Assembly (NCBI RefSeq): GCF_950097975.1 | Contig: NZ_CATNHF010000032.1 | Span: forward strand, 1-64,000 | Direction: 5' to 3' | DNA from: Microbacterium sp. T2.11-28 | GTDB lineage: Bacteria; Actinomycetota; Actinomycetes; Actinomycetales; Microbacteriaceae | DNA: 64,000 bases | Shown: positions 2,208-17,437 of the stretch, in pieces | Layout: each line of letters begins with the position of its first letter | Numbering within the stretch: the first letter of the stretch is position 1 | Translations under genes and position numbers: made by a program | The notes under the pieces: generated by a model | Databases searched by the model: none | What the model was told of the DNA's origin: nothing | What the model saw: only the letters and a program-made list of their open reading frames with translations

Positions 2208-3302
2208 CTATCGCAGCCGGCTGAGGAGCGTGTCCACGGTCGTCACGGCGACTTCGTGCGCCGCAGAGCCCAACGCGGCGGTCGGAATCGATTCGTCAGG
2301 GAGGAGCTGGATGGCCTCCTCGCGACTCGGAATCGACATCGACGAGCGCGATGCGCTGGGCACCGGACCCACCGTGACGCGCGGTGCGCCAGTGACGCGA
2401 AGCGCGACCGCGCAGCGGGCGGTGGAGACGTACTCCATCCGGTCGGTGAGGCGGAGGGCCCGGGTGACGTTCTGCACTGCATCGTCGCGGTCAAGAAAGG
2501 AGCCCATCTGGTCCGCCGGCAGGACGAATGTCACCGCGAACTGACCGGACTTATCGATGGATGCGGCGTCGAAGCGGGACGGTCGCACGCTGTTCCATCC
2601 AGCCCGCGGGCCGTCGTCGCTGGAGGAAAGCCTGAACGTATCCACGCCGTCGTGCTCCGTGAGCCCAGACAGCTGTGAGATAACGTTCTCCGAGCGGAGC
2701 ATCGCTGCCAAACGCTGCGCAGCCTGCCGGAACACCCGGTCCGTGGTGGGAGTGTCGGCGACCGGGAGGACCCGCACTTCAAACCTCGGGTCCCGCGATC
2801 TGATGTCACGGTCCGACACCCAGCCAGGCTGGACGAGAGTTCCCAGCGGTGCGAAGTCGAGAGCGGCAGGTCGGTTCTGCGCGTCGCGGATGGCTTCGAC
2901 GACACCCTGCTGCAGTTCTGTGGTTGTGGTGAACGTCTTCCAGAACCGCCCGCTGCCGTACTCACCGACCTCCTGGGCAAACTCTTCCTGGTCCGCGTCG
3001 AAGGCCACGCCGCTCTTGCGGAACACGTAGATCTGAAGCCCGGCCTGCCGGGCGGCGCGCCACTCATCGTTCGTGGCGGACTGACCCGTCTCCGGGAACC
3101 GATACCCGTAATGCGGGCCCAGCAGCAGGATATAGACGTCGCTGTCGGCGACGGCCGCAACGCACGCTTCGCGCGACGGCACCTTCTGGGCCGAGAAATC
3201 CTCGAACCGCACCGGGGTGTGCTCGAGCGCTCGAATGAGTCCGGGAAGCGCCTCACGCTCATCCTCCAGGCCGGCGCGGACACTGCTGATGAAGACTCTC
3301 AC
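2208..3302 (-). CDS. DUF4062 domain protein (364 aa)
   Basis: The start MRVFISSVRAGLEDERE is the hallmark of DUF4062, a Rossmann-like TIR/SLOG-related domain usually at the N-terminus of NTPase or conflict-system proteins. Residues 1-105 cover the domain, with the conserved DVYILLLGPHYGYR strand-turn and the NDEWRAARQ helix. The C-terminal 220 residues (residues about 150-364) have no recognised effector. They contain a segment with paired strands and an ALRLTDRMEYVSTA motif that may be a sensor or ligand-binding part. DUF4062 proteins are frequent in defence islands, and this gene lies among other such candidates. The function of this copy is unknown. Confidence 0.8.
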   Translation of the reverse strand: MRVFISSVRAGLEDEREALPGLIRALEHTPVRFEDFSAQKVPSREACVAAVADSDVYILLLGPHYGYRFPETGQSATNDEWRAARQAGLQIYVFRKSGVAFDADQEEFAQEVGEYGSGRFWKTFTTTTELQQGVVEAIRDAQNRPAALDFAPLGTLVQPGWVSDRDIRSRDPRFEVRVLPVADTPTTDRVFRQAAQRLAAMLRSENVISQLSGLTEHDGVDTFRLSSSDDGPRAGWNSVRPSRFDAASIDKSGQFAVTFVLPADQMGSFLDRDDAVQNVTRALRLTDRMEYVSTARCAVALRVTGAPRVTVGPVPSASRSSMSIPSREEAIQLLPDESIPTAALGSAAHEVAVTTVDTLLSRLR

Positions 3303-3472: not shown

Positions 3473-4051
3473 TCACCAGGACTGTTCGATTGACATGACA
3501 ACTTCCGTGCAGATCGTGCGGAGCGCACTGGGCACGGGGTCAGTCGAGTCGGGGTAAGGGTTGCCCGCGCTGTTGATTCGAAGTGGCCGGAGCCCGCCCT
3601 TGCGGGTGATTGACTCGTAGTCCGCCGGCAGGACGGGGTCGACGTGCGCGCCGCCGTCGAAGTTGGCGGTCCGCAACACGAACCACGATCGATCGATCGA
3701 CGCTCTATTGAACTCGAGCATCCGCCCCCGCCACCACTGCGAGAAGGTGCACTCGAATTGGGGCATGCCTGGAATGTGCCGGTAGCCCGGTTCATTCGGT
3801 CCTTCGACCCATGGCGGGCCGACAAAGGTGTCTTCGAGCAACGGCACGGCTGATAGCCAGGTGATGCGATCGCGCATCTTCAGCTGACTGAGCAAGCTCT
3901 GAGATGCGGCAGTGTCGTGGACGAGTGTTCGAACGGCAACTGCGATCCTCTTCGATTCGGAGGTGGTGCCGGCGTCGAAGCTGATGGCCGAAGCCCGCAG
4001 CCAGGCGATCTGCTCCCCAAGTCGTTGATCGAGTTCGCGCCTGCTTCGCAC
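3473..4051 (-). CDS. conserved hypothetical protein (192 aa)
   Basis: This soluble protein starts with GTG at 4051; no strong ribosome-binding site is visible. It has an N-terminal helical part followed by a conserved-looking core: a WW pair in FSQWWRGRMLEF, then WFVLRTANFDGGAHVDP and a final helix ICTEVVMSIE. The DGGAHVD motif occurs in small proteins of mobile elements whose function I do not know. No membrane segment, signal peptide or catalytic motif is evident. It is transcribed with the genes on either side, about 170 bp after the 496-aa gene, so it may belong to the same cluster. Confidence 0.6.
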   Translation of the reverse strand: MRSRRELDQRLGEQIAWLRASAISFDAGTTSESKRIAVAVRTLVHDTAASQSLLSQLKMRDRITWLSAVPLLEDTFVGPPWVEGPNEPGYRHIPGMPQFECTFSQWWRGRMLEFNRASIDRSWFVLRTANFDGGAHVDPVLPADYESITRKGGLRPLRINSAGNPYPDSTDPVPSALRTICTEVVMSIEQSW

Positions 4052-4219: not shown

Positions 4220-5710
4220 TCACGCCGAGGGCAAGCCCCATTCGTCCAGGTTCGGATCGTCAACGAGTTCCTCGACTTCTTCCTCATCCGCTTCTTCGAG
4301 TGCGGACATGTCGAGAGGCGTCTGGCCGTCGTCCTTCTCATAGGCAAGGAACTCCACCAGCGCCTCCCGGTGTTCTACGGGCAGGTCATAGACGAGTGGG
4401 ATCGTGGTGCCCAGCAGATCGGCCATCAGAATGTTGCTCCGAGTCACGCCCGTACCCGTCCGCTCCGCCAGGTCCACATTCACTCGACCAGACCTCGTGG
4501 ATACGATGGACTGCGCGACTTCCCCCGCGCCCTCGAAGGTGGCCGACAGACCGCGCAGGCGCTCGGTGCTGATGGCGCCCTCATCGATCTTCGCGCTGAT
4601 GTGTTCGGGACCGGAGTGGACGCTGACCTCCACCAGGTCGAAGCCCTCTGAGCGCTCGATAAACCGCTCGACGGACACGGCTTGAGCCGCGTCCTTCTCT
4701 ACGTCGTCGAGGTCCTTCTTTGCCCCGCCGAGGATCGCGAAGAGGCTGGGAGCCTCAAAGCTAATGTGGCGTCCACGACGTGCCCAGCGGAACAGCTCAC
4801 CCTCGACCGGGGAGTCGAGCCCGAGGGGGTCGCTCTTCACCACTGCTGCCCGCGCCGCGATCACATCCAGGTTCGCCCTCACGAGCCGCTGAATGTTGTC
4901 GGCATCGGTGTCGAAGTCCAGCGTCTCCAGATCTGTCAGGCGCAGACCACGCCCCACTCGCTTCCAGAACCCCTCGTCGTCGGTGCGCATGTACTTGACG
5001 AGGTAGCGCAGGGACTCAGGGTTGAGACGACCCGAGGTATCCGCACCGCCGGGGAACTGAGTGAGCGATCCTTCGCTTCCGACCCAGACTGCCTGTAGTA
5101 CACGGTTCATGCGCCACGCCTGTGGTCCTCCGAGGCGATCTTCAATCGCGGTCACGGCCTCGGCAGTCTGCTCGAACTCGACCTGTGCCGCCGCGTCAAA
5201 GCCGCGCGCCACCACGTCCGCGAGGTCTACGGCTTGATCCGCCACGAACGTCCCGCGACCGCCCTGCGCGAGCGCATTGCTTAGCATGTTGGCGGTCGAA
5301 TCGGACTGCTTGCGGTCGATGAGGCGTTGCAGCGCGGATGGCTCCGTGAACATGGCATTGGTGTCCGCGATCACCTCATCAATCGCCGGTTTGGCTTCGA
5401 CCGACTCCGGGCTGGTGAGGCCAAAGATGAGCGGATCGGTGGAGTCGATGAGGGCCACGTCGTCCACGAGGGCGTCGAGATCGTAAGTCAGGCGCAGATA
5501 GACCCGGCGGCTGGTCTCGTCCGGCCACGTCATCACGAAGTCGGGCGCGAACGTGTGGTTGAAGTAGTTGGTGGACCGGATTTTCGCGGTCGCATCGAGT
5601 GCGGACAGCTCCTTCGCCACCGCGTCCTTGACTCGGAAGATCGACTCGCGCGGGGATGGGTCGAAGAGACCGTCGAGGATCTGGGCGGCGAAGCCGGACA
5701 CGTCAGGCAT
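4220..5710 (-). CDS. unknown 496-aa protein, coupled to a nuclease-like gene
   Basis: The ATG at 5710 shares one base with the stop of the upstream nuclease-like gene (TGATG), so translation is probably coupled. The protein is soluble and mostly alpha/beta. It has no Walker motif, no Cys or His metal cluster and no membrane segment. The last 35 residues form a strongly acidic tail rich in EE and DD pairs. A central TAEAVTAIEDRLGG helix and a late segment with NVDLAERTGTG could carry binding functions, but I do not recognise a family. The fixed two-gene arrangement with a PD-(D/E)XK-like partner suggests a sensor or specificity subunit, or an inhibitor, of a two-component defence system (inference). 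Confidence 0.65.
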   Translation of the reverse strand: MPDVSGFAAQILDGLFDPSPRESIFRVKDAVAKELSALDATAKIRSTNYFNHTFAPDFVMTWPDETSRRVYLRLTYDLDALVDDVALIDSTDPLIFGLTSPESVEAKPAIDEVIADTNAMFTEPSALQRLIDRKQSDSTANMLSNALAQGGRGTFVADQAVDLADVVARGFDAAAQVEFEQTAEAVTAIEDRLGGPQAWRMNRVLQAVWVGSEGSLTQFPGGADTSGRLNPESLRYLVKYMRTDDEGFWKRVGRGLRLTDLETLDFDTDADNIQRLVRANLDVIAARAAVVKSDPLGLDSPVEGELFRWARRGRHISFEAPSLFAILGGAKKDLDDVEKDAAQAVSVERFIERSEGFDLVEVSVHSGPEHISAKIDEGAISTERLRGLSATFEGAGEVAQSIVSTRSGRVNVDLAERTGTGVTRSNILMADLLGTTIPLVYDLPVEHREALVEFLAYEKDDGQTPLDMSALEEADEEEVEELVDDPNLDEWGLPSA

Positions 5711-6315
5711 CAGTCTCCCTTCCTCGCCTCGTAGTCTTCAATGACCCCGCGATGCTCCTTCGAGATCACCAGGTTTTCCTGCTTCTCGGACAGGACGATC
5801 AGCCACAGTCTGCTCGCCACCGCCGACACCGCGTCGGCGTCGATCAGGGCTTCGGCCTTGTCCTTCTCCTTGACGCCGAACACCCGCTCGCGGTGCACAA
5901 TGACATGCTCGCGCACGTACTCCGCGCTCATGAGTTCGGGCCACTTGGTGATCGAATGCGGGCTCCACGCCAACCACATGAAGTTGTCGCACATCCCCGG
6001 CTTGTCGAGATAGGCAACGTAGCACTGCGCGAGGAACTGGGAGTAGTGGGTCGCGAGGTCGCTCGGGGCGTCGTAGTTCTTGGACTCCGCGAAGAACATC
6101 TGGCCGTCGTACTCGCCGTACCGGAGGAGCCCGCCGAGGTCGAAGGAGAAGTTCTGACCGCCATGAGGCCACGCGAAACGGAGCTTCGTCACGGCGGGCG
6201 GGTCGGGGTTCACCCACTGGGCGTTCACGCGGGTGGTCGATTCGAGCCACCGCTTCGCGCGGCGTGCGCCGTCCGCGCCTTTGGCCTGGGCCGTCTCCCC
6301 TTCGATCCGGGTCAT
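5710..6315 (-). CDS. PD-(D/E)XK-like nuclease domain protein (201 aa)
   Basis: The fold signature is visible: an N-terminal helix (GADGARRAKRWLE), a strand ending in FSFDLGG with Asp59, then a strand with the E77-S-K79 triad in MFFAESKNY. This is the D-x(n)-ExK active-site spacing of restriction-endonuclease-like nucleases. A C-terminal region with KEKDKAEALIDADA and WLIVLSEKQE completes a small domain. The ATG at 6315 precedes the 496-aa gene, with a 1-nt overlap at the end. It probably cuts nucleic acid as part of a two-gene system. Specificity cannot be told from sequence, and a nickase or structural role is possible. Confidence 0.6.
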   Translation of the reverse strand: MTRIEGETAQAKGADGARRAKRWLESTTRVNAQWVNPDPPAVTKLRFAWPHGGQNFSFDLGGLLRYGEYDGQMFFAESKNYDAPSDLATHYSQFLAQCYVAYLDKPGMCDNFMWLAWSPHSITKWPELMSAEYVREHVIVHRERVFGVKEKDKAEALIDADAVSAVASRLWLIVLSEKQENLVISKEHRGVIEDYEARKGD

Positions 6316-6424: not shown

Positions 6425-6922
6425 ATGACCTTCGGCGACACCCTCCTGGCAACCCTCATCGGTGCGCTGGTCGGCGCCGTCGTGGGTGCGTTCGCGGCCT
6501 GGCTGTTCTCGCTTGACCTCCGACGCCGCGAGACCGAGGACAGCGATCGGACTCGGCTCGACCTGGCCGTGGCCGACGTGGTGCGCCTCCTCGGGCAAGT
6601 CGGCGGCGCAGGCGAGGCATTCATGTTCGCCCTCCAGCTCGGAAACCCCGCCGTGCCCGCTCCGCCTCCGCACCTGGCGCGTCAGCAACTACTCTCTGCA
6701 ACGCTCGCGGCGCGTATGGCGGCAGGTGATGACGAGGGGCCACTCCTCGCGGTCTACGAGCTCGTCACTCGGAAGGACGACAGGACGGCGAACCGCACCG
6801 CCATCGACTACGAGCACGCGGCGCACCTCCTTGTGCAGTGGCGGCAAGGCAAGGTCTCGACAGCCGACGCTCATGCACAGATCGCCGCCGGGTCGCTCCC
6901 TCCCGTTTCCCCTGAGGGCTGA
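6425..6922 (+). CDS. small membrane-anchored hypothetical protein (165 aa)
   Basis: The protein has one N-terminal membrane segment (residues about 8-30, rich in Gly, Ala, Val and Leu) followed by a cytoplasmic helical domain starting RRRETEDSDRTRLDLAVADV. There is no signal-peptidase site, so it should stay anchored. It is divergent from the nuclease-like pair, about 110 bp away, and read toward the relaxase gene. No family is recognised. In defence clusters such one-helix proteins sometimes act as membrane effectors, but nothing in the sequence proves that. Confidence 0.6.
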   Translation: MTFGDTLLATLIGALVGAVVGAFAAWLFSLDLRRRETEDSDRTRLDLAVADVVRLLGQVGGAGEAFMFALQLGNPAVPAPPPHLARQQLLSATLAARMAAGDDEGPLLAVYELVTRKDDRTANRTAIDYEHAAHLLVQWRQGKVSTADAHAQIAAGSLPPVSPEG

Positions 6923-7249
6923 GAAGCCAGCGCGCGGCATCCCGTGGGTCTTCCTTCACCTCGTGAGGGGCCGGGATCACCTCGCGCAACTTGAAGCCCA
7001 AGTGCGCGATTGCCGGTCCATGTGCGTGCGGTTCGCTCCGGCTCAGCCCGTCGACCGCCCGTGCCGAAGCAGCGTCTCAGATGCCTAGCCCGATGAAATG
7101 GACGGAGTCCTCCCTTATCCGTACATGTCCCGCCGACCTGCAGCGCGCCGCCAGGTCGTCAGCTGCACAGGGCCAGAGGATGGTGATGCACGCAGGCACT
7201 TTCTGTGTGAGCACTTACGCGTTAGACATATTGCGCGTAGCGTGGGAGC
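6923..7249. other. 327-bp gap upstream of the relaxase, possible oriT region
   Basis: No convincing gene is present. The part next to the relaxase start is relatively AT-rich and holds a short inverted repeat (7216-7239). MobF-type relaxases usually act on an oriT close to their own gene, so this gap is the most likely place for it in the window (inference). Confidence 0.35.
7216..7239. other. inverted repeat, candidate nic/oriT element
   Basis: TACGCG at 7216-7221 and its complement CGCGTA at 7234-7239 are separated by an AT-rich 12-nt loop and lie 10 bp before the relaxase GTG. The size fits a relaxase recognition hairpin, but the arms are only 6 bp, so a promoter or chance palindrome is also possible. 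Confidence 0.25.
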
Positions 7250-9994
7250 GTGCGCGGAGGTCTCGAGCGATGGAAGCGGGGCGTTGAGTCCCACGGGGTT
7301 CGGCAGGCGATCGCGTACGCGTTCGACGCGACGTGCGACGCGCACTGGTCGCCGTCGCGTGGAGCGGCCGCGGCGGCTGAATACGGCTCGATCGTTGAGG
7401 GCGTCGCTCGGTTCGTGGCGACTGACCTCGGCATTGCAGCCGATCGGCTCGACGCTGACGCGTTGCGGCTATGGATCGATGGCTGCGATCCATCGACGGG
7501 GGAGCGGCGCGGCTTCGAGCTGATGAGCCCGGACGCCGACCTGTTGCTCGACGGCACGATCAACGCACCGAAGTCGTACAGCATCGCTGCTCTGCTTCAC
7601 CCTGAGATTGCGCGGGAGCTCGAGGCGCTTCAGGATCGCCTGCGTGATCGCATCATCGCCACCTGGCTCCGCGAGCTGAATGCGCGCCGTGGCGCTGGCG
7701 GCCATATCAGAGAGAGCCTCGCCCGAATCGAGGTAGTCGAACTTCAGCACCGTCGATCGCGTGCCTTGGATCCCCACATCCACCGCCACTTGTGGCTGAA
7801 CGTGAAGGTGCAGGGGCGCGACGGCCGTTGGTCGAACGTGGATTCCAGAGTCGCCATGAGGCTTCACACCCTGATCAATGCGGAGGGTGATCTTGCCGCT
7901 CGGACGGACCCGCAATGGACGGCCACTTTGGCGCGTCACGGCTTCTCACTCGACGCCGACGGTGAGATCTCCGAGCTTTCTCACGTCGTTCGCCCCCTGT
8001 CTCGCCGGTCCAATCAGATCGAGGCGAACCGTGCTCGCTTCATCGCGGAGTGGCGTGCGGCGCATGCGGGACAAGTGCCGAGTCCGGACGTGCTCCATCA
8101 GATCGATCGGCGCGCGTGGGCGACGAGCCGTCCCGGGAAACCCATGGCGATCTCAGAATCTGATTGGGAGGAGCTGGTCCGTGCAGAGATAGCAGCCCTC
8201 GATGATCGTGTACTTGTCGCGCGATCACCGATCGCGCGAATCGCCACGGACCTCGACTGTCTGGATCTGGACCTGCTTGCACAGAAGGCGGTCGTGGACG
8301 CCGATGCGCGCTCCACGTCGTGCGGCGGGCGGTTTAGCATGCTCGACGTGCGCGCGGGGGCGACCCGCGCGGTCGCATCCTCTGGCGTTGTCGCGACCCG
8401 TGATCGTCTCCAACCGCTCATCGACGCAGTCGCCGATCGCGCGCTGGATTGCACCGTTGACCTACTGGCCGCGGATCCCCACCGACCGCCGCACATCAAG
8501 GCCCTGATGGCAACCGCAACGGTCACGCTGAAGACGTGCCTGGAGGAACAATACCGCCGCCTAACATGGCGCGGGGCTCCGTGTGACTCACGCACAATCT
8601 TCTTAGCGCTGCGGTCAGTCGTGGGCCACGGCAACAAGGTGGATGCGACGCAGGTCGAGGCAGCCGCAGCTATTGCCGGAACGGATCGCCTCGTTGCCGT
8701 GATCGGTCCGGCCGGCGCCGGGAAGACGTCCGTGCTTCGATTGACAAACGCCGCGCTGCGGGCGGACGGGCGCCGGATGATCGTGGTCGCACCAACTCGG
8801 AAGGCGGCCGGCGTCGCGAGTCGCGAACTCGGCGCGACTACATCCAGCCTGCACGCTCTCCTACATGACCACGGTTGGCGGTGGGGTCGCGACGACGCCG
8901 GGGCGGAGAACTGGCGGCGCCTCGAGGCCGGCGAGCCCGACCCGGACACCGGCGTCCCGTACCCCGGACCGACACAATTCAGGATTCGACCAACAGACCG
9001 GATTGTCATTGACGAAGCAGGGATGGTCGACCTCCACACCGCCATAGCCATCACCGAACTCGCCTCATCGACGGGAGCGTCCCTAGCGATGATGGGCGAT
9101 CCCCTGCAGGCTCGACCCGTCGGACACAGCGGCGCGATGTCGATGCTCACCCATCGAGCAACAGCCGTAGTCGAACTGACCACCATCCACCGATTTGAAG
9201 ACCCGGACTACGCGCCACTCACTCTCCGCATGCGCGAGCCCCAATCACGAGATGACGCTGAGGCGGTCGCCGCTCAGCTGGACCGACGCGGACACCTGCA
9301 CCACGCTCCGCACCTTGATGCCGCCCGCGACCTCATGGCCGAGCAGTATTTCGCCAGCGTGGACCGGGGTGATCGCGTCGCGCTGGTCGTCGCAACCAAC
9401 GACGATGCTGACGCCCTCAATGAAGCCATCCAGCAACGGCGACTCGACGCTGGCGAACTGAACGAACACGACCTCGCGATTGGACAACAGCAGCAACGGC
9501 TCCTGGTAGGTGACCGTGTCCAGACGCGTCGCAACGATCGTCGCAATGAAGTCGACAACCGTGCGCTCTGGGTCATCCGCGCCGTCCACCGCGCTGGTGT
9601 TGACCTCGTGAGTGAGGTCGACGCGGGAGTGATTCGAACCGTCTCACACAACTATGCGGCTGAACATCTCCATCTCGCATACGCGACCACCATCCACGGC
9701 ATCCAGGGCGAGACCGTCGACGTATCCATCGTCGGGCCGGGCGTCGATGCTCCGGGCCTCTACGTCGGAATGACGCGAGGGCGGCGCCACAACGCCGCCG
9801 TCGTTATCGCATCGGAGGTGGAGGCTTGCTCAGAACTCGCGACCACGATGACGAGAGGGCGTATCGAGATGACCATCGGAGACGCCGTTCGCGCAGCCCG
9901 AAATGAACTCGTTCGATCAGCGCGACCGGTACCCACACCGCAGCCCGGCGGATACGACTCCACCATCGACGAGAGAGCTCAGATGGGGCGATGA
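7250..9994 (+). CDS. MobF-type conjugative relaxase with RecD-like helicase (914 aa)
   Basis: This enzyme would nick oriT, stay covalently bound to the transferred strand and unwind it. The relaxase domain (about 1-300) has the metal-binding histidine triad in DPHIHRHLW (H176, H178, H180) and the NAPKSYSIAALLHPE segment typical of actinobacterial TraA/TrwC proteins. Candidate catalytic tyrosines lie near the N-terminus (Y23, Y45). The C-terminal half is an SF1B helicase with Walker A GPAGAGKT (486-493), Walker B VIDEAGM (about 586-592) and a late TIHGIQGETVD motif followed by MTRGR. The start is GTG at 7250 with a purine-rich site just upstream. The N-terminus is slightly shorter than in many homologues, so an upstream start cannot be excluded. 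Its stop overlaps an ATG by 4 nt. Confidence 0.9.
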   Translation: MRGGLERWKRGVESHGVRQAIAYAFDATCDAHWSPSRGAAAAAEYGSIVEGVARFVATDLGIAADRLDADALRLWIDGCDPSTGERRGFELMSPDADLLLDGTINAPKSYSIAALLHPEIARELEALQDRLRDRIIATWLRELNARRGAGGHIRESLARIEVVELQHRRSRALDPHIHRHLWLNVKVQGRDGRWSNVDSRVAMRLHTLINAEGDLAARTDPQWTATLARHGFSLDADGEISELSHVVRPLSRRSNQIEANRARFIAEWRAAHAGQVPSPDVLHQIDRRAWATSRPGKPMAISESDWEELVRAEIAALDDRVLVARSPIARIATDLDCLDLDLLAQKAVVDADARSTSCGGRFSMLDVRAGATRAVASSGVVATRDRLQPLIDAVADRALDCTVDLLAADPHRPPHIKALMATATVTLKTCLEEQYRRLTWRGAPCDSRTIFLALRSVVGHGNKVDATQVEAAAAIAGTDRLVAVIGPAGAGKTSVLRLTNAALRADGRRMIVVAPTRKAAGVASRELGATTSSLHALLHDHGWRWGRDDAGAENWRRLEAGEPDPDTGVPYPGPTQFRIRPTDRIVIDEAGMVDLHTAIAITELASSTGASLAMMGDPLQARPVGHSGAMSMLTHRATAVVELTTIHRFEDPDYAPLTLRMREPQSRDDAEAVAAQLDRRGHLHHAPHLDAARDLMAEQYFASVDRGDRVALVVATNDDADALNEAIQQRRLDAGELNEHDLAIGQQQQRLLVGDRVQTRRNDRRNEVDNRALWVIRAVHRAGVDLVSEVDAGVIRTVSHNYAAEHLHLAYATTIHGIQGETVDVSIVGPGVDAPGLYVGMTRGRRHNAAVVIASEVEACSELATTMTRGRIEMTIGDAVRAARNELVRSARPVPTPQPGGYDSTIDERAQMGR

Positions 9995-11365: not shown

Positions 11366-11815
11366 TCAGCGTGCAACTGCGGTGTCGGCGTGCAAGGCCG
11401 GTGCTGTTGACGGCCCCGTAGCGTGTGCTGCGGGGCCGTTAGCTTTTGGGCTGCGGGCGACGTCGAGGTCGACGAACTTCAGGGATGCTCCCACGTTGTC
11501 GGCGACGATGTCGCGTGTCTCCCTGGTCTGGCCTGAGTCCTTGTCGGTGTAGGTGCCGAAGCGGAGGTCTCCGGCGACGAGGACGTTGTCGCCTTTGCGG
11601 AGGCTGCGGGCGACGTGGTTGGCCTGTTGGTTGAAGACGACGACGCGGTGGAAGACGGTGCCGGCGTCTTCCCATGTGCCGTTGGTCTCGTTGAGGCGGC
11701 GGTCGTTGACGGCGACGGTGAAGCGGGCGTATTCGCTGCCGTTGCCTTCGGCGAAGCCGTGTTCGGGGTCTCCGGTGAGGTTGCCTTCGATGGTGACCGG
11801 GATTTTGGTGGTCAT
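11366..11815 (-). CDS. ssb: single-stranded DNA-binding protein
   Basis: The OB-fold is recognisable over residues 1-118: TIEGNLTGDPE, then EYARFTVAVNDR, the FHRVVVFNQQANHVARSLRKGDNVLVAG core and a FGTYTDKDSGQTRE strand pair. It coats single-stranded DNA during transfer or replication. The C-terminal tail ends HADTAVAR and lacks the acidic DDDIPF-like tip with which chromosomal SSB recruits repair proteins. This is the last gene of the minus-strand transfer operon; its ATG overlaps the previous stop by 4 nt. It is followed by the terminator hairpin. It is most likely a transfer-dedicated SSB that protects incoming plasmid strands. Confidence 0.9.
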   Translation of the reverse strand: MTTKIPVTIEGNLTGDPEHGFAEGNGSEYARFTVAVNDRRLNETNGTWEDAGTVFHRVVVFNQQANHVARSLRKGDNVLVAGDLRFGTYTDKDSGQTRETRDIVADNVGASLKFVDLDVARSPKANGPAAHATGPSTAPALHADTAVAR

Positions 11816-12357
11816 GGTGTTTCCTTTCGTGGTGAGTCACCCGGTTGGGTGTCTCGGTGGGCGTGTGACCGGGTGGTCCACGCGGTCCAGGCGTCTTCGT
11901 CGGTAACTCCGTCCCAAGTGCGGGGCGTGAGGTCGTGGTGCCCGTTGTTGCAGCCGCCGCCGTAGGCGCGGGTGAGGCGGGGGAGGGCTTGGGTGAGGCG
12001 TTCGTGCCAGGAGATGGGCCCGTAGCCGGTGTCGGCGTCGTCGTAGGAGACGGTGTGGGCGGTGTGGAGGGCGGAGAGCTCTTCGACGAGTTGTCCGTGT
12101 TGCCACCAGCAGGTGGGGATGGTGGAGACGGGGATGTTGTAGCGGGTGGTGAACCATTCGACGAACGCGCGGAGGGACCGCCAGGCGGCGGGGGCGTCTT
12201 CGGGTTCGAGGGTGCGCCAGTTGATGACGGCGGCGCCGAGGGTAAGGGAGGATCCGCGGCGGTTGCGGAAGTCGTACGCGCCGATGCCAACGAGGTCGTC
12301 GTCGAGGAGCGCGTCCGGGTCGTCGACGTTGTCGGGGTCGGGGTAGTAGTTGCTCAT
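11812..12357 (-). CDS. DUF4913-like protein of transfer operon (181 aa)
   Basis: The core (residues about 45-140) reads WRTLEPEDAPAAWRSLRAFV, then IPTCWWQHGQLVEELSALHTAH and a GPISWHERLTQALPRL helix. This matches the pattern of DUF4913-type proteins found in actinobacterial plasmids and integrative elements: Trp, Cys, His and paired helices near the ssb or coupling-protein genes. Biochemistry is unknown. The N-terminus is acidic with DD pairs, and the C-terminus is polar. It overlaps both neighbours by 4 nt, so it is made with the coupling protein and SSB. Confidence 0.65.
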   Translation of the reverse strand: MSNYYPDPDNVDDPDALLDDDLVGIGAYDFRNRRGSSLTLGAAVINWRTLEPEDAPAAWRSLRAFVEWFTTRYNIPVSTIPTCWWQHGQLVEELSALHTAHTVSYDDADTGYGPISWHERLTQALPRLTRAYGGGCNNGHHDLTPRTWDGVTDEDAWTAWTTRSHAHRDTQPGDSPRKETP

Positions 12358-12734
12358 GCGGACTCCTGGAGTTTGGGGCGGAGGCGGCTGAGGGCGATGT
12401 GGGTGGCGTCGCGGCGTGTGCGGTTGCGGGAGAGGAGTTGGTCGCGGTCGATGAGCCGGTGGAGCAGGTCGTGACAGTAGGGGTGGAGGGGGAGGAGGTC
12501 TTCGTGAAGTTCGAAGGCGTGCATGATGCCGCCGGTGGAGGACATGCCCCGGTAGTCGAGGTGGTGCAGCTCGAGCTCAGCGCGTGAGGCGTTCCGTCCG
12601 CAGCCGGCGCAGGTGAGTGATCCGAGAGTGACAGCGTGGTCGAACCAGCGTGCTCTTCGGGCGTACCAGGCGCGGGAGTGGAGGTATATGGCGTGGTACA
12701 GCGGCACCGCGCTGGGTCGGCGTCGGTTGCTCAT
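12354..12734 (-). CDS. HNH-like zinc protein (126 aa)
   Basis: The sequence shows a CAGC knuckle, an ELHHLDYRG motif and HPYCHDLLHRLI. This is the C-x2-C ... HH ... H ... C-x-x-x-H layout of HNH-type ββα-metal nucleases or related zinc ribbons. The start ATG (12734) overlaps the stop of the coupling-protein gene by 4 nt. I exclude the 135 basic residues upstream in the same frame because they lie inside that gene. It could nick DNA or serve only as a structural zinc protein of the transfer machinery. Loss of the usual Asn cannot be judged without an alignment. Confidence 0.6.
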   Translation of the reverse strand: MSNRRRPSAVPLYHAIYLHSRAWYARRARWFDHAVTLGSLTCAGCGRNASRAELELHHLDYRGMSSTGGIMHAFELHEDLLPLHPYCHDLLHRLIDRDQLLSRNRTRRDATHIALSRLRPKLQESA

Positions 12735-14557
12735 GGCTCGGTCACCTCCTCCGCTTCCTCGGGATGTGTGACCTCGGGCGGGCGTGTGGGCCGGTGGGCG
12801 GCCTCGAAGACGGCCTGCTGCTCCGTTTCGGTGGCGTGTTTGCCCGCGGTGATGTGGCGGGCGTCGCGGCGTTCGTCCCAGCCGGCGAGATCGAGGAGCA
12901 CGCCACGGCGGTTGCGGTAGGCGAGCAATCCGAGCGTTTGCGGCATCCGTCGGATCTCGTCCACCGACATGAGGGGGCGCCGGTCGACTTGTTCCGACGT
13001 TTGATGCCCGTGGCTGGTCGTGGACCAGGAGCGTTGGGTGCGGCGCGTGTCGCGTTCGCCGAGGAGGGTTTCGATGTCGCGGAGGTGGTCGACGTGGGAC
13101 GCGCCACCGAGAAGGACTTTCGCGGTCGCGGCGGCCCAAATGGTGTCGGCTTCGGCACGGGACCAGGCTGTCTCCGCTTGAGAGAGGGCTTGGAGGACGA
13201 CGAAGGTGCAGATGCCTCGGCCGCCGCCGTCAGCCATGATGCGGGGGAGGTTCGCCCACCGGAACATGTTGACGATCTCGTCCAGGATGAGCCCGAGTGG
13301 AAGATGCAGTCGTGACCCGACGGACGCGAGCGCACGGGTGCGGGCGACTTCCACGACGTCGTCGAGCACCGCTGACAGCCAGCCGCCCATCGCGGCAGCG
13401 CCGGAGGATGAGCCGAGGAGGTAGAGGGTGTTGGGGGCGTCGAGGAATTCGCGGGGGTCGAAGGTGGGGTCGCCGGGGTGGGGTTGGAAGGTGTCGCGGA
13501 TTTGGGGGACGGCGAGGGGTGCGACGGCGCCTTGGACGCCGAACCAGATGGAGGAGACGAGTTTCTGGTCGCCGGCGATGGTGGCTTCGAGGCTGTCGCC
13601 CCAGCCGGGTGCGCCATCGGTGCGGAGGATGTCGACGGCGGTGCGAGCGAGAGCGGGGGAGGAGCCCCAGTCGTAGATGTCGGTGACGTTCCTGCCGCCG
13701 ACGGCGGCCGCGTGGAGGAGCCTCCCGAGGACGATTCCGGATGCTTGGGCCCATTCGGCGTTGGTGGCGGAGGAGCCGAGGGCGGTGCCGGTGATGATGG
13801 CGGTGCCGCGTTGGGTGGCGACGAGGGGGTCGTCGCATCCGGCGACGGGGTCGATCCGGAGCGGGTCGCGCATGCCCGAGAGGCCTTGCGGGTCGAGGAC
13901 ATGGACCTGTCCGCGGCGCTTGCGCATCTGGAGAGTGGCCGTGAGGTTGTCGTTGGTGGTCGAGGTGGTGATGAGCGGGCCTGACCAGTCGAGGATCGCG
14001 GAGATCAGCACCCGGTACCCCTTCCCGGACCGGGGTGGGCCTTCGAGGGCGACGGAGTCTTCGATGCTGACGTACACGTCCATGCCGCGGGACGCGCCAA
14101 CCCGCCACCCGACATCGGTCGCCGCCGGCCTGTCGAGATCGGGGCGCAGCTGCGGGGCTCGGCGGAGAACGGCCTTCGACGAGAGGTGCTGACGGATCTC
14201 GGAAGGTGTCGCGAACCCGGGGCGGAGCTTCAGGTCCGCGAGGAACGCCCGGTCGGATTGCCGGTATCGCTGCCACCACAGCAACACGGCGACCGCGGCG
14301 GCCACAATGAGGGCGACGGCGAGGAGATCGGCGATGCGGATCTGCCACACCGGCACTTCGCATCCGTCCGGCGCCGTGTAAACGGTGGGATCTCCGATGA
14401 GGGCGAGCCACAGCCCGGAGAAGAGGGAATCGGGTTTCGCGGGTGCTCCACAGGTCAGGCGGGTGATCCCGTCGGCGACGCCGGCGAATGCGACCGCGAT
14501 CATCACCAGCGCCGCGAAGGCAACGGCGAGGCTCTTCCCGATCGTTCCCTCGTTCAC
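12731..14557 (-). CDS. type IV coupling protein, VirD4/TraG-like ATPase (608 aa)
   Basis: This protein links the relaxosome to the secretion channel. It has two N-terminal membrane regions (about 10-30 and 75-95) with a short external loop. A cytoplasmic RecA-like ATPase domain follows, with Walker A GPPRSGKG (173-180) and Walker B GLILDEIVN. A late EADTIWAAATAKVLLGG segment and a C-terminal RRGVLLDLAGWDERR block resemble TraG proteins of actinobacteria. I start at GTG 14557, 10 nt after the previous stop; the longer frame to 14824 would overlap the ParA-like gene and is Ser/Arg-rich. The end overlaps the HNH-like gene by 4 nt. Confidence 0.88.
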   Translation of the reverse strand: MNEGTIGKSLAVAFAALVMIAVAFAGVADGITRLTCGAPAKPDSLFSGLWLALIGDPTVYTAPDGCEVPVWQIRIADLLAVALIVAAAVAVLLWWQRYRQSDRAFLADLKLRPGFATPSEIRQHLSSKAVLRRAPQLRPDLDRPAATDVGWRVGASRGMDVYVSIEDSVALEGPPRSGKGYRVLISAILDWSGPLITTSTTNDNLTATLQMRKRRGQVHVLDPQGLSGMRDPLRIDPVAGCDDPLVATQRGTAIITGTALGSSATNAEWAQASGIVLGRLLHAAAVGGRNVTDIYDWGSSPALARTAVDILRTDGAPGWGDSLEATIAGDQKLVSSIWFGVQGAVAPLAVPQIRDTFQPHPGDPTFDPREFLDAPNTLYLLGSSSGAAAMGGWLSAVLDDVVEVARTRALASVGSRLHLPLGLILDEIVNMFRWANLPRIMADGGGRGICTFVVLQALSQAETAWSRAEADTIWAAATAKVLLGGASHVDHLRDIETLLGERDTRRTQRSWSTTSHGHQTSEQVDRRPLMSVDEIRRMPQTLGLLAYRNRRGVLLDLAGWDERRDARHITAGKHATETEQQAVFEAAHRPTRPPEVTHPEEAEEVTEP

Positions 14558-14567
14558 GGCCAGATCC

Positions 14568-15839
14568 CTACTCGAGCCCGTCGGAGACGGCCGCCGCTGC
14601 AGCCACCCACGCATGCCGGGTCGCGGGGCGGAGCGTGTCGAACCGGAGCGGCCCGGCCTTGAGTGCCGCGTCGTAAGGGATGAGCCGGACCTCGCGGACG
14701 AGCGGGTCGAACGCGTCAGCGATGCGCCGGGCGACGGCCCACCGGCCCGGTTCGGACTGGGTAACGACGACGACCGCGCTACCGGCGAGCTGCCGAGATC
14801 GGTCGTCGCGGGTGCGGAGGGCATCGAGGAGGAGCCGGGCGGATTCGGCGGACTCCGGGGCTGTGAGGGTGGGGATCACGAGCGCCCCGGCGGAGTCGAT
14901 CATCCGCAGCCACCGGTCGGCGGATTCGTCGTTGCCGGAGTCGAAGATCACGAGCCGGTAGTACCGGGCCGCGACCCGCATCAGGCGGTCGAAGTCCTCC
15001 GCGGTGAGCCGCTGGTCGACGGCGAGCAGCTCCGGGTTGGAGCGGAGCACGTCGTACCGGTCGGCGCCCTGATGGTGCACGTACCGGGTGATGTCGGCCA
15101 CGCCTGCGTCTGCGGCGAGGAGGGTGTCGGTGGCGGGGAGGAGGTCGCGGATGGTGGTGTCGTAGAGGCCTTGTTCGGTGCGCCAACCGAGGGTGCCGCG
15201 GGTGTCGTTGTTGTCCCACGCGAGCACGTTCCCGCCGCCGTGTCGTCCGTAGACGGCGGCGAGCATCGCGGTGGTGAGCGTCTTCCCCACGCCTCCTTTC
15301 CCGTTGGCGATTGCGATGGTTCGGCATCCTGCCCAATGCCGTGACACGGCCCCCACCTGCCGGTCCCGTTCCAGCTGGCGCGGTGTTGGAGGGAGTGTGA
15401 GACCGAGCCTGGCAAGCAATCCCGTGCCACGGGATACCGCAGTCGGGTCGATGAAGGACGCGCGGGGTGTCTCGCTTCGCGTCTCTGCCGCCGCGGGGGT
15501 CTCCTCTGTCTCAGTTCCCTCCTCGGTGACGGTCGGCGGGGAGTCGACGGGCGGTTCGGGGGTGGTGCGGTCGGCGCGGAGGGGTGGGTGTTCGGCGTCG
15601 GGGTAGGCGGCAAGGGTGCCGTCGGCGCCGACGAGGAGGTGGTGGTCGCCGCGGTCGCCGCTGGTGATGAGTTCCAGGGTGGTTCCGGCGTCGCGGGCTT
15701 CGGTGGTTGCGCGGCGGACGACGGCGTGGCGGATGTCTTCTGTCCCGGTCGTCGTGACCGGTTCGGTGTGTCCGGCGCGGTCGGTGAAGACGGCGACGGG
15801 TCCGGTGACGGTGGCGTAGATGCGGGCGGTTGGGGTCAT
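14568..15839 (-). CDS. ParA/MinD-like ATPase of transfer operon (423 aa)
   Basis: After a variable N-terminal region (1-170, with acidic EETPAAAE repeats) comes a deviant Walker A motif, NGKGGVGKT (179-187), and a RYYRLVIFDSGND Walker B-like strand. This is the P-loop of the ParA/MinD superfamily. The protein probably positions the transfer machinery or assists its secretion, as SCO5717-like ATPases do next to VirB4-like genes in actinobacteria (family knowledge; role here inferred). It overlaps the VirB4-like gene by 4 nt. A partition role is less likely because no ParB is adjacent. Confidence 0.8.
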   Translation of the reverse strand: MTPTARIYATVTGPVAVFTDRAGHTEPVTTTGTEDIRHAVVRRATTEARDAGTTLELITSGDRGDHHLLVGADGTLAAYPDAEHPPLRADRTTPEPPVDSPPTVTEEGTETEETPAAAETRSETPRASFIDPTAVSRGTGLLARLGLTLPPTPRQLERDRQVGAVSRHWAGCRTIAIANGKGGVGKTLTTAMLAAVYGRHGGGNVLAWDNNDTRGTLGWRTEQGLYDTTIRDLLPATDTLLAADAGVADITRYVHHQGADRYDVLRSNPELLAVDQRLTAEDFDRLMRVAARYYRLVIFDSGNDESADRWLRMIDSAGALVIPTLTAPESAESARLLLDALRTRDDRSRQLAGSAVVVVTQSEPGRWAVARRIADAFDPLVREVRLIPYDAALKAGPLRFDTLRPATRHAWVAAAAAVSDGLE

Positions 15840-17437
15840 GAGTGCTCCTCAGCGGCGGGGGCGGTCAGCCACCCTTCGAGGTCGGCGACGACCGGGGTGG
15901 CGGTGGGCCAGAGTTCGTCGAGCCCTCCGGATAGGGCCGGGGTAGGGGTCGGGTCGTAGTCGGCGGGGTGAACGGCGTCGTCGGTGGCGAACAGGTCTTC
16001 TTCCCAGGCGGTGGAGGTGGCGAAGCAGTCGACGAGGTAGGAGTACTGGCCGACGTAGGCGATGAACTCCCCTTTCCGCAGTTGCCGGGCCATTTCGACG
16101 TGCGCGGGTGGGAGGTGGAGGCGGTCGCGGAGGGAGGCGTGTTCTTGGTGGTTGACGCGGAAGATGAACTTGTTCTCGATGTCGCCGATCACCGAGTACG
16201 CGAGGGATCGTTCGAGGGAGCCGGCTTCGCCGACGGCGTCGAGGTCGCCCATCTTGTGGAGGATCACGATGTTGCTGATCCCGTAATGTCGGGACAGTTT
16301 CAACCACTGCTGGAACATCTGCAGCGACGCGAGGGACGTCATGTCGCGCCAGCCCTCTTCACGGACGACGTATCGGGTGCGGTGCGCGTTCCGGTCGCTG
16401 ATGACGGCTTGGATCCAGGCGGTGGAGCACACCTGGGCGAGCTGTGCGGCGAGTTCCCCGCGGGCGAACAGTTCGCTGGTGTCGGTGACGACGATCGGGG
16501 CGTCCTGGTCGAACTCGACCGTGGAATCGTCCTCGAACAACCCAGACAGGTCGCCTTCCACGAAGCGGCGCAGCACGAACCGGGGTTGGACGGCGCCTTC
16601 GTGGGCGCGGAGCTCGGAGTGGGTTTCGGAGGCGATGGTGCCGAGTTGGTTGTAGACGCCGCGGAGGGTGGGGTGGTCGCCGGTGAGGGTGATGCACCGG
16701 TCGAGGGCGTCGTGGATCGCGGCGTGTTCTACGGCGGTGAGTCGGGTGCCGCCGAGTGCCATTTCGACGAGGGAGATGAGGGTGGCGATGCGGCGTTGCT
16801 TCGCCATCTGCTCGTGTTGCTCATCCGACGTGTCCGAGCGCCGCGGTCCCCTCGCCAGCGGGTTGAGGCGGGCGCCGGTACCGCCGCCCAAACGGATCAC
16901 TTTCCCGCCGGGGATCGCTTCGGCGACCGCCACCCATTCTCCCTTGGGGTCCGATGGGACGACGACCTGATGCCCGAACGCGATCGATCGGGTCACGAGC
17001 GTCTTGACGGTCCCGGATTTTCCCGACCGGTATGCGCCGAGCACGAGGATGTTGGTGGAGAAGGTGCCGCGGTCGCTCGCGTCGACGTACGCCTCCCAGG
17101 GGGAGAAGTGCCACAGCGCGTCCGCGTTCAGATCGACACCCAGCACGGGCCCGCGGTGACCGAGGCCGGCATCTGCGGCGAACGGGTAAATCCCCGCGAT
17201 GTGCTGAGACGTCGCCTGGTGGGCCGGCACCCAAGCCGGACTCACATTCCAATACCCACCGGTGACGATGCCGGGTCCGAACGGACCGCGAACGGCTGCC
17301 TCCGGGAGTGTCCGGTCACGACGGGATGACCGTGCGGGCCGGGCGTCCCGGTCAGCTGCGGCCAGCTCGCGGCGCAGCGCCCGGCGGTCCCGGCGGGACG
17401 CGTCGCCTGGTTCGAAGGAGACGGTGCGGCGAGTCAC
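15836..17437 (-). CDS. VirB4/TraC-like transfer ATPase (533 aa)
   Basis: The protein powers the secretion channel. Walker A is GAYRSGKS (134-141), and Walker B is probably the IVVTDTSEL strand. A YVVREEGWRDM motif and an LSRHYGISNIVILHKMGDL helix match VirB4/TraC C-terminal domains. It lacks the usual N-terminal VirB4 domain, which is supplied by the adjacent SCO6880 protein. I start at GTG 17437 because it forms a GTGA overlap with the previous stop. The longer frame to 17728 would run into that gene. It overlaps the ParA-like gene by 4 nt. Confidence 0.85.
   Translation of the reverse strand: MTRRTVSFEPGDASRRDRRALRRELAAADRDARPARSSRRDRTLPEAAVRGPFGPGIVTGGYWNVSPAWVPAHQATSQHIAGIYPFAADAGLGHRGPVLGVDLNADALWHFSPWEAYVDASDRGTFSTNILVLGAYRSGKSGTVKTLVTRSIAFGHQVVVPSDPKGEWVAVAEAIPGGKVIRLGGGTGARLNPLARGPRRSDTSDEQHEQMAKQRRIATLISLVEMALGGTRLTAVEHAAIHDALDRCITLTGDHPTLRGVYNQLGTIASETHSELRAHEGAVQPRFVLRRFVEGDLSGLFEDDSTVEFDQDAPIVVTDTSELFARGELAAQLAQVCSTAWIQAVISDRNAHRTRYVVREEGWRDMTSLASLQMFQQWLKLSRHYGISNIVILHKMGDLDAVGEAGSLERSLAYSVIGDIENKFIFRVNHQEHASLRDRLHLPPAHVEMARQLRKGEFIAYVGQYSYLVDCFATSTAWEEDLFATDDAVHPADYDPTPTPALSGGLDELWPTATPVVADLEGWLTAPAAEEHS

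What the first reader, a model, noticed from the sequence alone, without database searches (positions are those of the whole stretch)
4220..6315. Uncharacterised two-gene unit: 496-aa protein plus PD-(D/E)XK-like nuclease
The two genes are coupled by a TGATG overlap. The nuclease-like protein shows D59 and E77-x-K79, while its partner has no known motif but an acidic tail. They lie among AlbA_2, DUF4062 and a DGGAHVD orphan, all types seen in conflict islands. This is the best candidate in the window for an undescribed defence system (inference).
Basis: partly seen in the sequence, partly recalled or inferred. Interest (0 to 1): 0.75.

Follow-up and report, generated by a model that had tools for sequence, protein, structure and literature searches.

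The report
Unnamed actinobacterial two-gene nuclease system
Two overlapping genes, one for a small DNA-cutting-type protein and one for a larger partner that seems built on a dead version of the same fold, travel as a unit between actinobacteria, often lie near known phage-defence genes, and are probably an unnamed defence system.

Summary
In detail: genes of 201 aa (5710-6315, minus) and 496 aa (4220-5710, minus) overlap as TGATG. Neither matches Pfam, PADLOC, PHROGs or NCBIfam beyond chance. The pair is a conserved unit of Actinomycetota: 47 fetched loci carry the small gene and 44 of them the large one at the same place (42 with both intact); the other three have only truncated small genes. 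The small protein is a PD-(D/E)XK nuclease by model and motif (E7, D59, E77, K79 in 49 of 49). New: the large protein's N-terminal domain models, with middling scores, as the same kind of fold but lacks the acid (Y/F at 71, R/K at 73, 47 of 47). Copies lie on plasmids, beside Tn7-like genes and near known defence genes; neighbours match more PADLOC families than control regions, a crude count. No methyltransferase of three families is within 10 kb in 25 of 28 genomes, and two genomes lack all three. Best reading: a methylase-independent two-subunit nuclease for defence, the large subunit recognising the target. Defence is inferred, not shown. 'AlbA_2' and a conserved acidic tail do not hold up.

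The parts
5710..6315 (-). Small gene, 201 aa: PD-(D/E)XK nuclease subunit (P0002)
   Evidence: Model pLDDT 86.3; VIA-align best rows AF1548 Z 10.3, LmuA Z 10.0 and 9.5; E7, D59, E77, K79 in 49 of 49
6295..6297 (-). Codon of E7, invariant acid in the first helix
   Evidence: 49 of 49; helix 4-26, but residues 1-8 have pLDDT under 50
6139..6141 (-). Codon of D59, motif acid
   Evidence: 49 of 49
6079..6087 (-). Codons of E77-x-K79
   Evidence: 49 of 49 at both positions; strand 73-79
5708..5712 (-). TGATG stop/start overlap of the two genes
   Evidence: Sequence. In 42 of 42 intact fetched loci the large gene's start lies -3 to +7 of the small gene's stop, start codons being chosen by me as nearest to that stop
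4220..5710 (-). Large gene, 496 aa: partner subunit (P0001)
   Evidence: Found, intact or broken, directly downstream of every full-length small gene seen; model pLDDT 87.6
5204..5710 (-). Large protein residues 1-169: PD-(D/E)XK-like domain with degenerate site (D57; Y71 and R73 where E-x-K is expected)
   Evidence: VIA-align N.BspD6I Z 7.3, rmsd 4.4, 163 aligned; HindIII Z 7.2; FokI Z 6.8; D57 47 of 47, Y/F71 47 of 47, R/K73 47 of 47. Placing 71 and 73 on the E-x-K strand is inferred from strand order 58-61, 67-73
4391..4861 (-). Large protein residues 284-440: alpha/beta region with weak likeness to RdgC
   Evidence: VIA-align RdgC Z 7.0 but rmsd 6.4 over 150; RdgC first row in BFVD, E 0.024. 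Weak

Best explanation
The pair is a two-subunit nuclease system carried by mobile DNA of Actinomycetota. The small protein is the cutting subunit (PD-(D/E)XK). [quoted passage not shown] The two are made from overlapping genes and, I infer, bind each other. The dead domain would hold DNA and dock the active domain, so that cutting happens only when the large subunit has found a target. Since no methylase travels with the pair, the target must be told from self by something other than a cognate methylation: modified phage bases, DNA ends or structures, or replication intermediates. Shown: gene pair, co-inheritance, motif conservation, fold models, mobility, known defence genes near several copies. 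Inferred: complex formation, DNA as target, anti-phage or anti-plasmid role.
For: Pairing: 47 fetched loci hold the small gene; 44 have the large one at the same place (42 both intact, L005 with the large gene split, L040 degenerate); the other three have small genes of 111-146 aa. Random genome samples: both genes in the same 2 of 396 phylum genomes and the same 2 of 299 family genomes, the window's own genome being one of the two each time. Active-site residues E7, D59, E77, K79: 49 of 49; degenerate site of the large one: 47 of 47. Models and matches. The large subunit diverges faster: mean identity 0.30 against 0.42, small more alike in 987 of 990 comparisons, as expected if it carries recognition. 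Mobility: five plasmids; patchy, 4 of 99 genomes of the genus, own genome included. L003 aligns with L029, L004 and L039 over 53-112 bases upstream plus the pair, ending within 2 bases of the last stop, so the unit is these two genes. Defence neighbours: 215 PADLOC families matched by 120 neighbours and 177 by 98, against 46 by 114 control proteins; 6 of 10 large neighbours tested singly match: type IIG/I-like R-M (L022), DrmA (L045), HamB/PDC-M23B-like helicase (L048), HsdR (L057), GajA/OLD-like (L004, L054); annotated type ISP R-M in L002. No methylase link.
Against: No activity data. Foldseek E-values are weak (best 0.0011 for the small, 0.12 for the large, whose next rows include unrelated clamp-loader and ribosomal chains), and Z near 7 for the large may be only a common arrangement. 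hhalign sees no sequence relation between small and large. The neighbour count is of families, and single proteins inflate it on both sides: 20 of the first 25 families are PD-T4-6 models matched by two proteins (two protein kinases, by Pfam), and 21 of the 46 control families come from one SNF2 protein. 4 of 10 singly tested neighbours had no PADLOC match, and many neighbours are transport, regulation or metabolic genes. The window's own neighbours do not match PADLOC. A base rate: of 24 units with only remote homology to defence proteins, six of them PD-(D/E)XK, one protected in PMC13092281 (passage).
Confidence: 0.5

Rival explanations
1. Abortive-infection effector and sensor: the small nuclease is an indiscriminate DNase and the large protein senses infection (a phage protein or signal) and unleashes it, killing the cell.
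For: Close folds of the small protein are effector nucleases of such systems: LmuA, HerA-associated DUF, Cap4, Card1. The large protein varies most outside residues 41-100.
Against: No nucleotide cyclase, SMC or ATPase partner belongs to the unit: homology ends at the pair in L003 against L029, L004, L039. The PADLOC 'Effector' and SAVED rows are neighbours, not the pair.
Confidence: 0.2
2. Housekeeping or element-borne DNA processing (repair, recombination or plasmid upkeep), not defence.
For: A repair endonuclease, EndoMS and AF1548 are among the near folds of the small protein; weak RdgC likeness of the large one; conjugation genes near the pair in the window, with relatives in L050 and L057.
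Against: Rare and patchy; two deep subfamilies both present in one genus; more defence-type neighbours than controls.
Confidence: 0.15
3. Classical type II restriction enzyme in two subunits, its methylase elsewhere or in the neighbouring R-M genes.
For: Fold likeness to N.BspD6I, its small subunit, FokI and HindIII; R-M genes adjoin the pair in L002, L022, L057.
Against: Among 28 pair-bearing genomes a PF02384, PF00145 or PF01555 gene lies within 10 kb in 3, and two genomes (G787, G798) have none of the three. Other methylase families were not searched, and completeness of these two is not told.
Confidence: 0.09
4. Toxin-antitoxin pair: the nuclease is the toxin and the large protein its antidote.
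For: Two overlapping genes on plasmids and mobile DNA.
Against: Two copies keep an intact small gene with all four active-site residues beside a broken large gene (L005; second copy of G792, L085), so the small protein is not obviously lethal alone; sequencing error is not excluded. The partner is 2.5 times the nuclease's size.
Confidence: 0.05

Closest known systems
R.BspD6I, heterodimeric type IIS restriction enzyme (Nt.BspD6I plus ss.BspD6I)
   Same: A small catalytic subunit and a larger subunit with a nuclease-fold domain; N.BspD6I is the best VIA-align row for the large protein, and the small subunit 2p14 matches both proteins at Z 6.9. The small subunit works only with active large subunit (PMC6261011, passages).
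   Different: There the large subunit is itself a nickase, with the matched domain at residues 380-602; here the domain is N-terminal and lacks the acid. No methylase is linked here. No sequence match to solved structures was found.
Lamassu LmuA, Cap4 and HerA-DUF effector nucleases
   Same: Among the nearest folds of the small protein in Foldseek and VIA-align.
   Different: The matched chains are 377-440 residues long, with further domains; that their systems add an SMC protein or a cyclase is recalled. Here the nuclease stands alone at 201 aa with a partner that has no Pfam match.
WonAB
   Same: Two-gene defence system whose second protein is a PD-(D/E)xK nuclease and where both genes are needed (PMC12137116, passages).
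   Different: WonA is an ABC ATPase; the large protein here has no Pfam NTPase match.
Inactive REase domains of BREX-related helicases
   Same: A degenerate nuclease-fold domain kept as a putative nucleotide or nucleic-acid sensor (PMC12839542, passages).
   Different: There it is fused to a helicase; here it heads a protein without helicase match, paired with a nuclease.

Membership tests
PD-(D/E)XK superfamily (small protein) | Core alpha-beta-beta-beta-alpha-beta fold | tested here: met
   Helix 4-26, strands 30-35, 55-57/60-64, 73-79, helix 87-104, strand 111-116, pLDDT 86.3; VIA-align Z 10.3 to AF1548, rmsd 2.6, 115 aligned
PD-(D/E)XK superfamily (small protein) | Acid plus (D/E)-x-K motif | tested here: met
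   D59, E77, K79 and E7 in 49 of 49
PD-(D/E)XK superfamily (small protein) | Metal-dependent nuclease activity | not testable with these tools
   Needs protein
PD-(D/E)XK superfamily (large protein, N-terminal domain) | Core fold | tested here: inconclusive
   Right strand and helix order, Z 7.3 to N.BspD6I, but Foldseek E 0.12
PD-(D/E)XK superfamily (large protein, N-terminal domain) | (D/E)-x-K catalytic motif | tested here: not met
   Y/F at 71 and R/K at 73 in 47 of 47; register inferred from strand order
Type II R-M, heterodimeric (BspD6I-like) | Linked cognate methyltransferase (three families searched: PF02384, PF00145, PF01555) | tested here: not met
   Within 10 kb in 3 of 28 genomes; none of the three families in 2 of 28. 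Other families not searched
Type II R-M, heterodimeric (BspD6I-like) | Catalytic site in both subunits | tested here: not met
   Large subunit site degenerate in 47 of 47
Lamassu | LmuA nuclease with SMC-type LmuB (recalled) | tested here: not met
   No PADLOC or Pfam match of either protein at E 10. LmuA fold likeness of the small protein is Z 10.0 and 9.5
CBASS with Cap4 | SAVED domain and nucleotide cyclase (recalled) | tested here: not met
   No Pfam or PADLOC match of either protein at E 10
Type IV (modification-dependent) restriction | Cleaves modified DNA only | not testable with these tools
   Needs assay
Type IV (modification-dependent) restriction | No cognate methyltransferase | tested here: inconclusive
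   None of three families within 10 kb in 25 of 28 genomes; other families not searched
Toxin-antitoxin | Effector lethal without partner | tested here: inconclusive
   Two copies with intact small and broken large gene

The most novel reading that the evidence does not exclude
A restriction system with neither methylase nor NTPase, in which a catalytically dead nuclease-fold subunit with an RdgC-like DNA-gripping end recognises invading DNA and licenses a separate small nuclease: a heteromeric restriction enzyme whose recognition subunit evolved from, or mimics, the enzyme itself.
Probability: 0.27. Interest if true: 0.75.

Novelty: new variant of a known kind. Interest (0 to 1): 0.55.

Why it matters
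The pair belongs to no family in the four libraries searched, spans eight named actinobacterial families in the fetched loci, and is a clean two-gene unit that can be cloned and tested at once. If it restricts phages or plasmids, it adds a way in which a dead nuclease fold serves as a sensor, and would be a barrier to gene transfer in Streptomyces and relatives.

Tried and rejected
Family searches of the pair found nothing (in one search both proteins were given without their first residue). Thirty members of each protein searched one by one gave only scattered weak Pfam rows (best NikA-like, E 5.7e-4, in 3 of 30 large members, not followed up). Sequence search of solved structures: only rows at E 0.34 or worse. 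Homology between small and large: none by hhalign. Genome-contig scan with the window's large protein alone: 28 pattern matches, no relative, although relatives exist, so that scan is insensitive. Phage records: no match at E 0.01 for either. IMG/VR gave three contigs, L058-L060, each with both genes; whether these contigs are viral I did not check. Promoter, terminator and RNA fold near the pair: nothing beyond shuffles. L007 was dropped as a pair: only a large-gene fragment matches there, near the end of a circular record whose join I did not examine. L005, L008, L040, L052 and L053 were dropped from the list of intact pairs. The tree of the large protein was not built (one search failed before it). 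A first idea that the large gene of G613 was decayed (note 2) was wrong: the two TAG lie at its end and the ORF is intact (corrected in note 3). A required R-M partner was rejected. Lamassu, CBASS and WonAB membership was rejected on partner type. Limits: PADLOC-DB is of 2023; newer defence model sets could not be tested; the two proteins could not be folded as a complex, nor domains alone.

Full report
What is there. On the minus strand of the window, a 201-aa ORF (5710-6315) is followed by a 496-aa ORF (4220-5710), the stop and start sharing TGATG. Neither protein has a match in Pfam, PADLOC-DB 2.0.0 or PHROGs at E 10; NCBIfam gives only chance rows (E 0.12 and 0.14, far under cut-off). The window is bases 1-64000 of a 129,280-base contig of an unnamed 3.4-Mb genome.

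Is it a real unit? tblastn against plasmid records found the large protein in 6 records and the small in 7. Five plasmids hold the two genes in the same order (in L005 the large gene is split). None of 50,697 phage records matches at E 0.01. A profile of the small protein found 37 loci in genome contigs, and genome searches added four. Scored with profiles, 47 loci carry the small gene and 44 of them the large gene at the same place: 42 with both intact, L005 with the large gene split, L040 degenerate. The three without it (L008, L052, L053) have small genes of 111-146 aa; L007 has only a large-gene fragment. Most of these loci were found through the small protein, so the large-only case is tested mainly. 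In the 42 intact loci the large gene's start lies -3 to +7 of the small gene's stop: 28 at -3, 7 at 0, 2 at +2, 4 at +3, 1 at +7. I chose start codons nearest that stop, so the exact offsets lean that way; the adjacency does not. Three IMG/VR contigs also hold both. Searches with the large protein as query agree with those by the small one: the same 2 of 396 phylum genomes and 2 of 299 family genomes, the window's genome being one of the two each time. In 22 genomes reached through loci, 21 have one match of the large gene and one has two.

The two proteins co-vary: pairwise distances over 45 pairs correlate at r = 0.94, best of 1000 permutations 0.21; shared descent alone can raise such a value. 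The small protein is the slower one, mean identity 0.42 against 0.30, more alike in 987 of 990 comparisons. The tree of the small protein has two deep subfamilies (100/100), and the window's genus has members in both. The window copy lies in a set of four with an Agromyces, a genus-mate and an IMG/VR contig (99/97), and the next row out is an Arthrobacter (98/90); Agromyces and Arthrobacter belong to different families. With patchy presence (4 of 99 genomes of the genus, own included) this fits transfer, though the tool warns that such counts do not prove it.

Mobile unit. In Streptomyces, L003 aligns with L029, L004 and L039 over the pair plus 53-112 bases upstream, ending within 2 bases of the large gene's stop; only pieces over 300 bases were listed, and L003 and L039 share one further, separate piece. 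So two genes make the unit. L003 shares 7.7 to 8.1 kb with L044, L032, L033 and L036; these blocks end within 5 bases of the stop in the first three and run 198 bases past it in L036. L003 and L005 share 4.1 kb that runs past the pair. The 8-kb block holds genes annotated in L003 as TnsA-like, Mu-type transposase and ATP-binding protein: the pair lies beside a Tn7-like element there.

Small protein. An AlphaFold2 model from 30 sequences (pLDDT 86.3) has the order of the PD-(D/E)XK core. VIA-align gives AF1548 Z 10.3 (rmsd 2.6, 115 aligned), LmuA Z 10.0 and 9.5 (rmsd 5.5 and 5.4), an XisH protein 9.3, an archaeal repair endonuclease 8.8, EndoMS 8.6 and a HerA-associated protein 8.6. Foldseek's first rows are Cap4 and LmuA, best E 0.0011. 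E7, D59, E77 and K79 are invariant in 49 of 49 members. The protein is very likely an active nuclease; activity is untested.

Large protein. The model (pLDDT 87.6) shows an N-terminal domain with helix 20-38, strands 43-46, 58-61, 67-73, helix 78-87, strand 94-97. VIA-align places residues 1-169 on N.BspD6I (Z 7.3, rmsd 4.4, 163 aligned), HindIII (7.2), the small BspD6I subunit (6.9) and FokI (6.8). Foldseek's first row is FokI, E 0.12, followed by unrelated chains and then YaeQ, EcoRV and VRR_NUC rows. These scores are middling and alone could mean a common arrangement; the strand order and the agreement among restriction enzymes make the reading likely. D57 is kept in 47 of 47, but on the strand where E-x-K should stand there is Y or F at 71 and R or K at 73 in 47 of 47; K28, T47, F50, N51, P56, W62, R68, G153, W249 and W309 are also invariant. 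I read this as a dead nuclease fold kept for another use. Residues 284-440 resemble RdgC weakly (Z 7.0, rmsd 6.4; first row in BFVD, E 0.024).

Neighbourhood. From 38 of the 42 intact loci (4 near-copies dropped: L033, L036, L037, L044) I took the 218 predicted proteins of at least 200 aa within 5 kb (gene calls by a codon script). At E 1e-10 they match 215 PADLOC families (120 proteins) and 177 (98 proteins). For control, 114 of 156 proteins from 20 regions at least 40 kb away on the same contigs match 46 families. This counts families, not proteins, and single proteins inflate it: 20 of the first 25 families are PD-T4-6 models matched by two proteins, and 21 of the 46 control families belong to one SNF2 protein. 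No significance is claimed. Ten large neighbours, chosen by me for size, were tested singly: 6 match PADLOC at E 1e-5 (type IIG/I-like R-M in L022, HamB/PDC-M23B-like helicase in L048, DrmA in L045, HsdR in L057, GajA/OLD-like in L004 and, more weakly, L054) and 4 do not (L017, L019, L051, L055). L002 has an annotated type ISP R-M gene 90 bases after the pair. Many other neighbours are transport, regulation or metabolic genes.

No linked methylase. In 28 genomes with the pair (22 reached through loci, five by genome search, and the window's own), PF02384 is present at E 1e-10 in 15, PF00145 in 16, PF01555 in 19; G787 and G798 have none of the three. Such a gene lies within 10 kb of the pair in 3 of 28 (G155, G793, G795), and just beyond in G801. 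Type ISP specificity domains occur in 8 of 28, none on the pair's contig. The genomes of L002 and L022, whose pairs adjoin R-M genes, are not among the 28. Other methylase families were not searched, and completeness of G787 and G798 is not told. A classical R-M enzyme is thus unlikely.

How it most likely works (inference from here). The large subunit recognises foreign DNA and, through its dead nuclease domain, positions the small nuclease, as the large subunit of R.BspD6I licenses its small one (PMC6261011, passages seen; BtsI is a second two-subunit case, PMC2909958, abstract). Lack of a methylase points to modified bases, ends or structures as the cue. An abortive-infection reading, with the small protein as a Cap4- or LmuA-like effector, is the main rival. 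Toxin-antitoxin is disfavoured by two copies with an intact small and a broken large gene. Inactive nuclease folds have been proposed as sensors in BREX-related systems (PMC12839542, passages), and a two-gene system with a PD-(D/E)xK protein, WonAB, is proven elsewhere (PMC12137116, passages). Actinobacteria are thought to be a source of novel systems (PMC10482375, abstract).

In print? A search of the paper library for six member accessions found no paper, and in the listings of topical searches I saw no description of this pair. PMC13092281 (passages) reports that 13 of 31 of its validated E. coli systems with known domains have PD-(D/E)XK nucleases; it also reports that of 24 units with remote homology but low score, six of them PD-(D/E)XK, one protected. 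Its main text has no mention of Streptomyces. The library lacks most subscription papers, so this is not proof of absence.

Noticed in passing
window 2208-3302, minus: DUF4062 protein (E 1.1e-21), also phrog_15411 and phrog_9489, function unknown.
   Followed up: no
window 3473-4051, minus: 192-aa 'DGGAHVD' protein matches phrog_7805 (E 9.7e-29), a family of unknown function; no Pfam match.
   Followed up: no
window 7250-9994, plus: TrwC relaxase with an AAA_30 helicase part; a 33% relative lies about 9 kb before the pair in L057, and four other window genes (11812-12357, 12731-14557, 15836-17230, 17434-18864) have 33-40% relatives around the pair in L050.
   Followed up: partly
L003, L032, L033, L036, L038, L044, L053: Tn7-like transposition genes lie about 2-6 kb upstream of the pair, or of its remnant in L053, in Streptomyces; in L032, L033 and L044 the block shared with L003 ends within 5 bases of the pair's last stop.
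   Followed up: partly
L085 (G792, second contig): A second copy of the pair in one genome, small gene intact, large gene with a premature stop.
   Followed up: partly
L057 3723-11776: The pair follows an apparent type I R-M operon on the same strand: N6_Mtase at 4233-5219, HsdR at 6605-9751, 22 bases before the small gene's chosen start.
   Followed up: no
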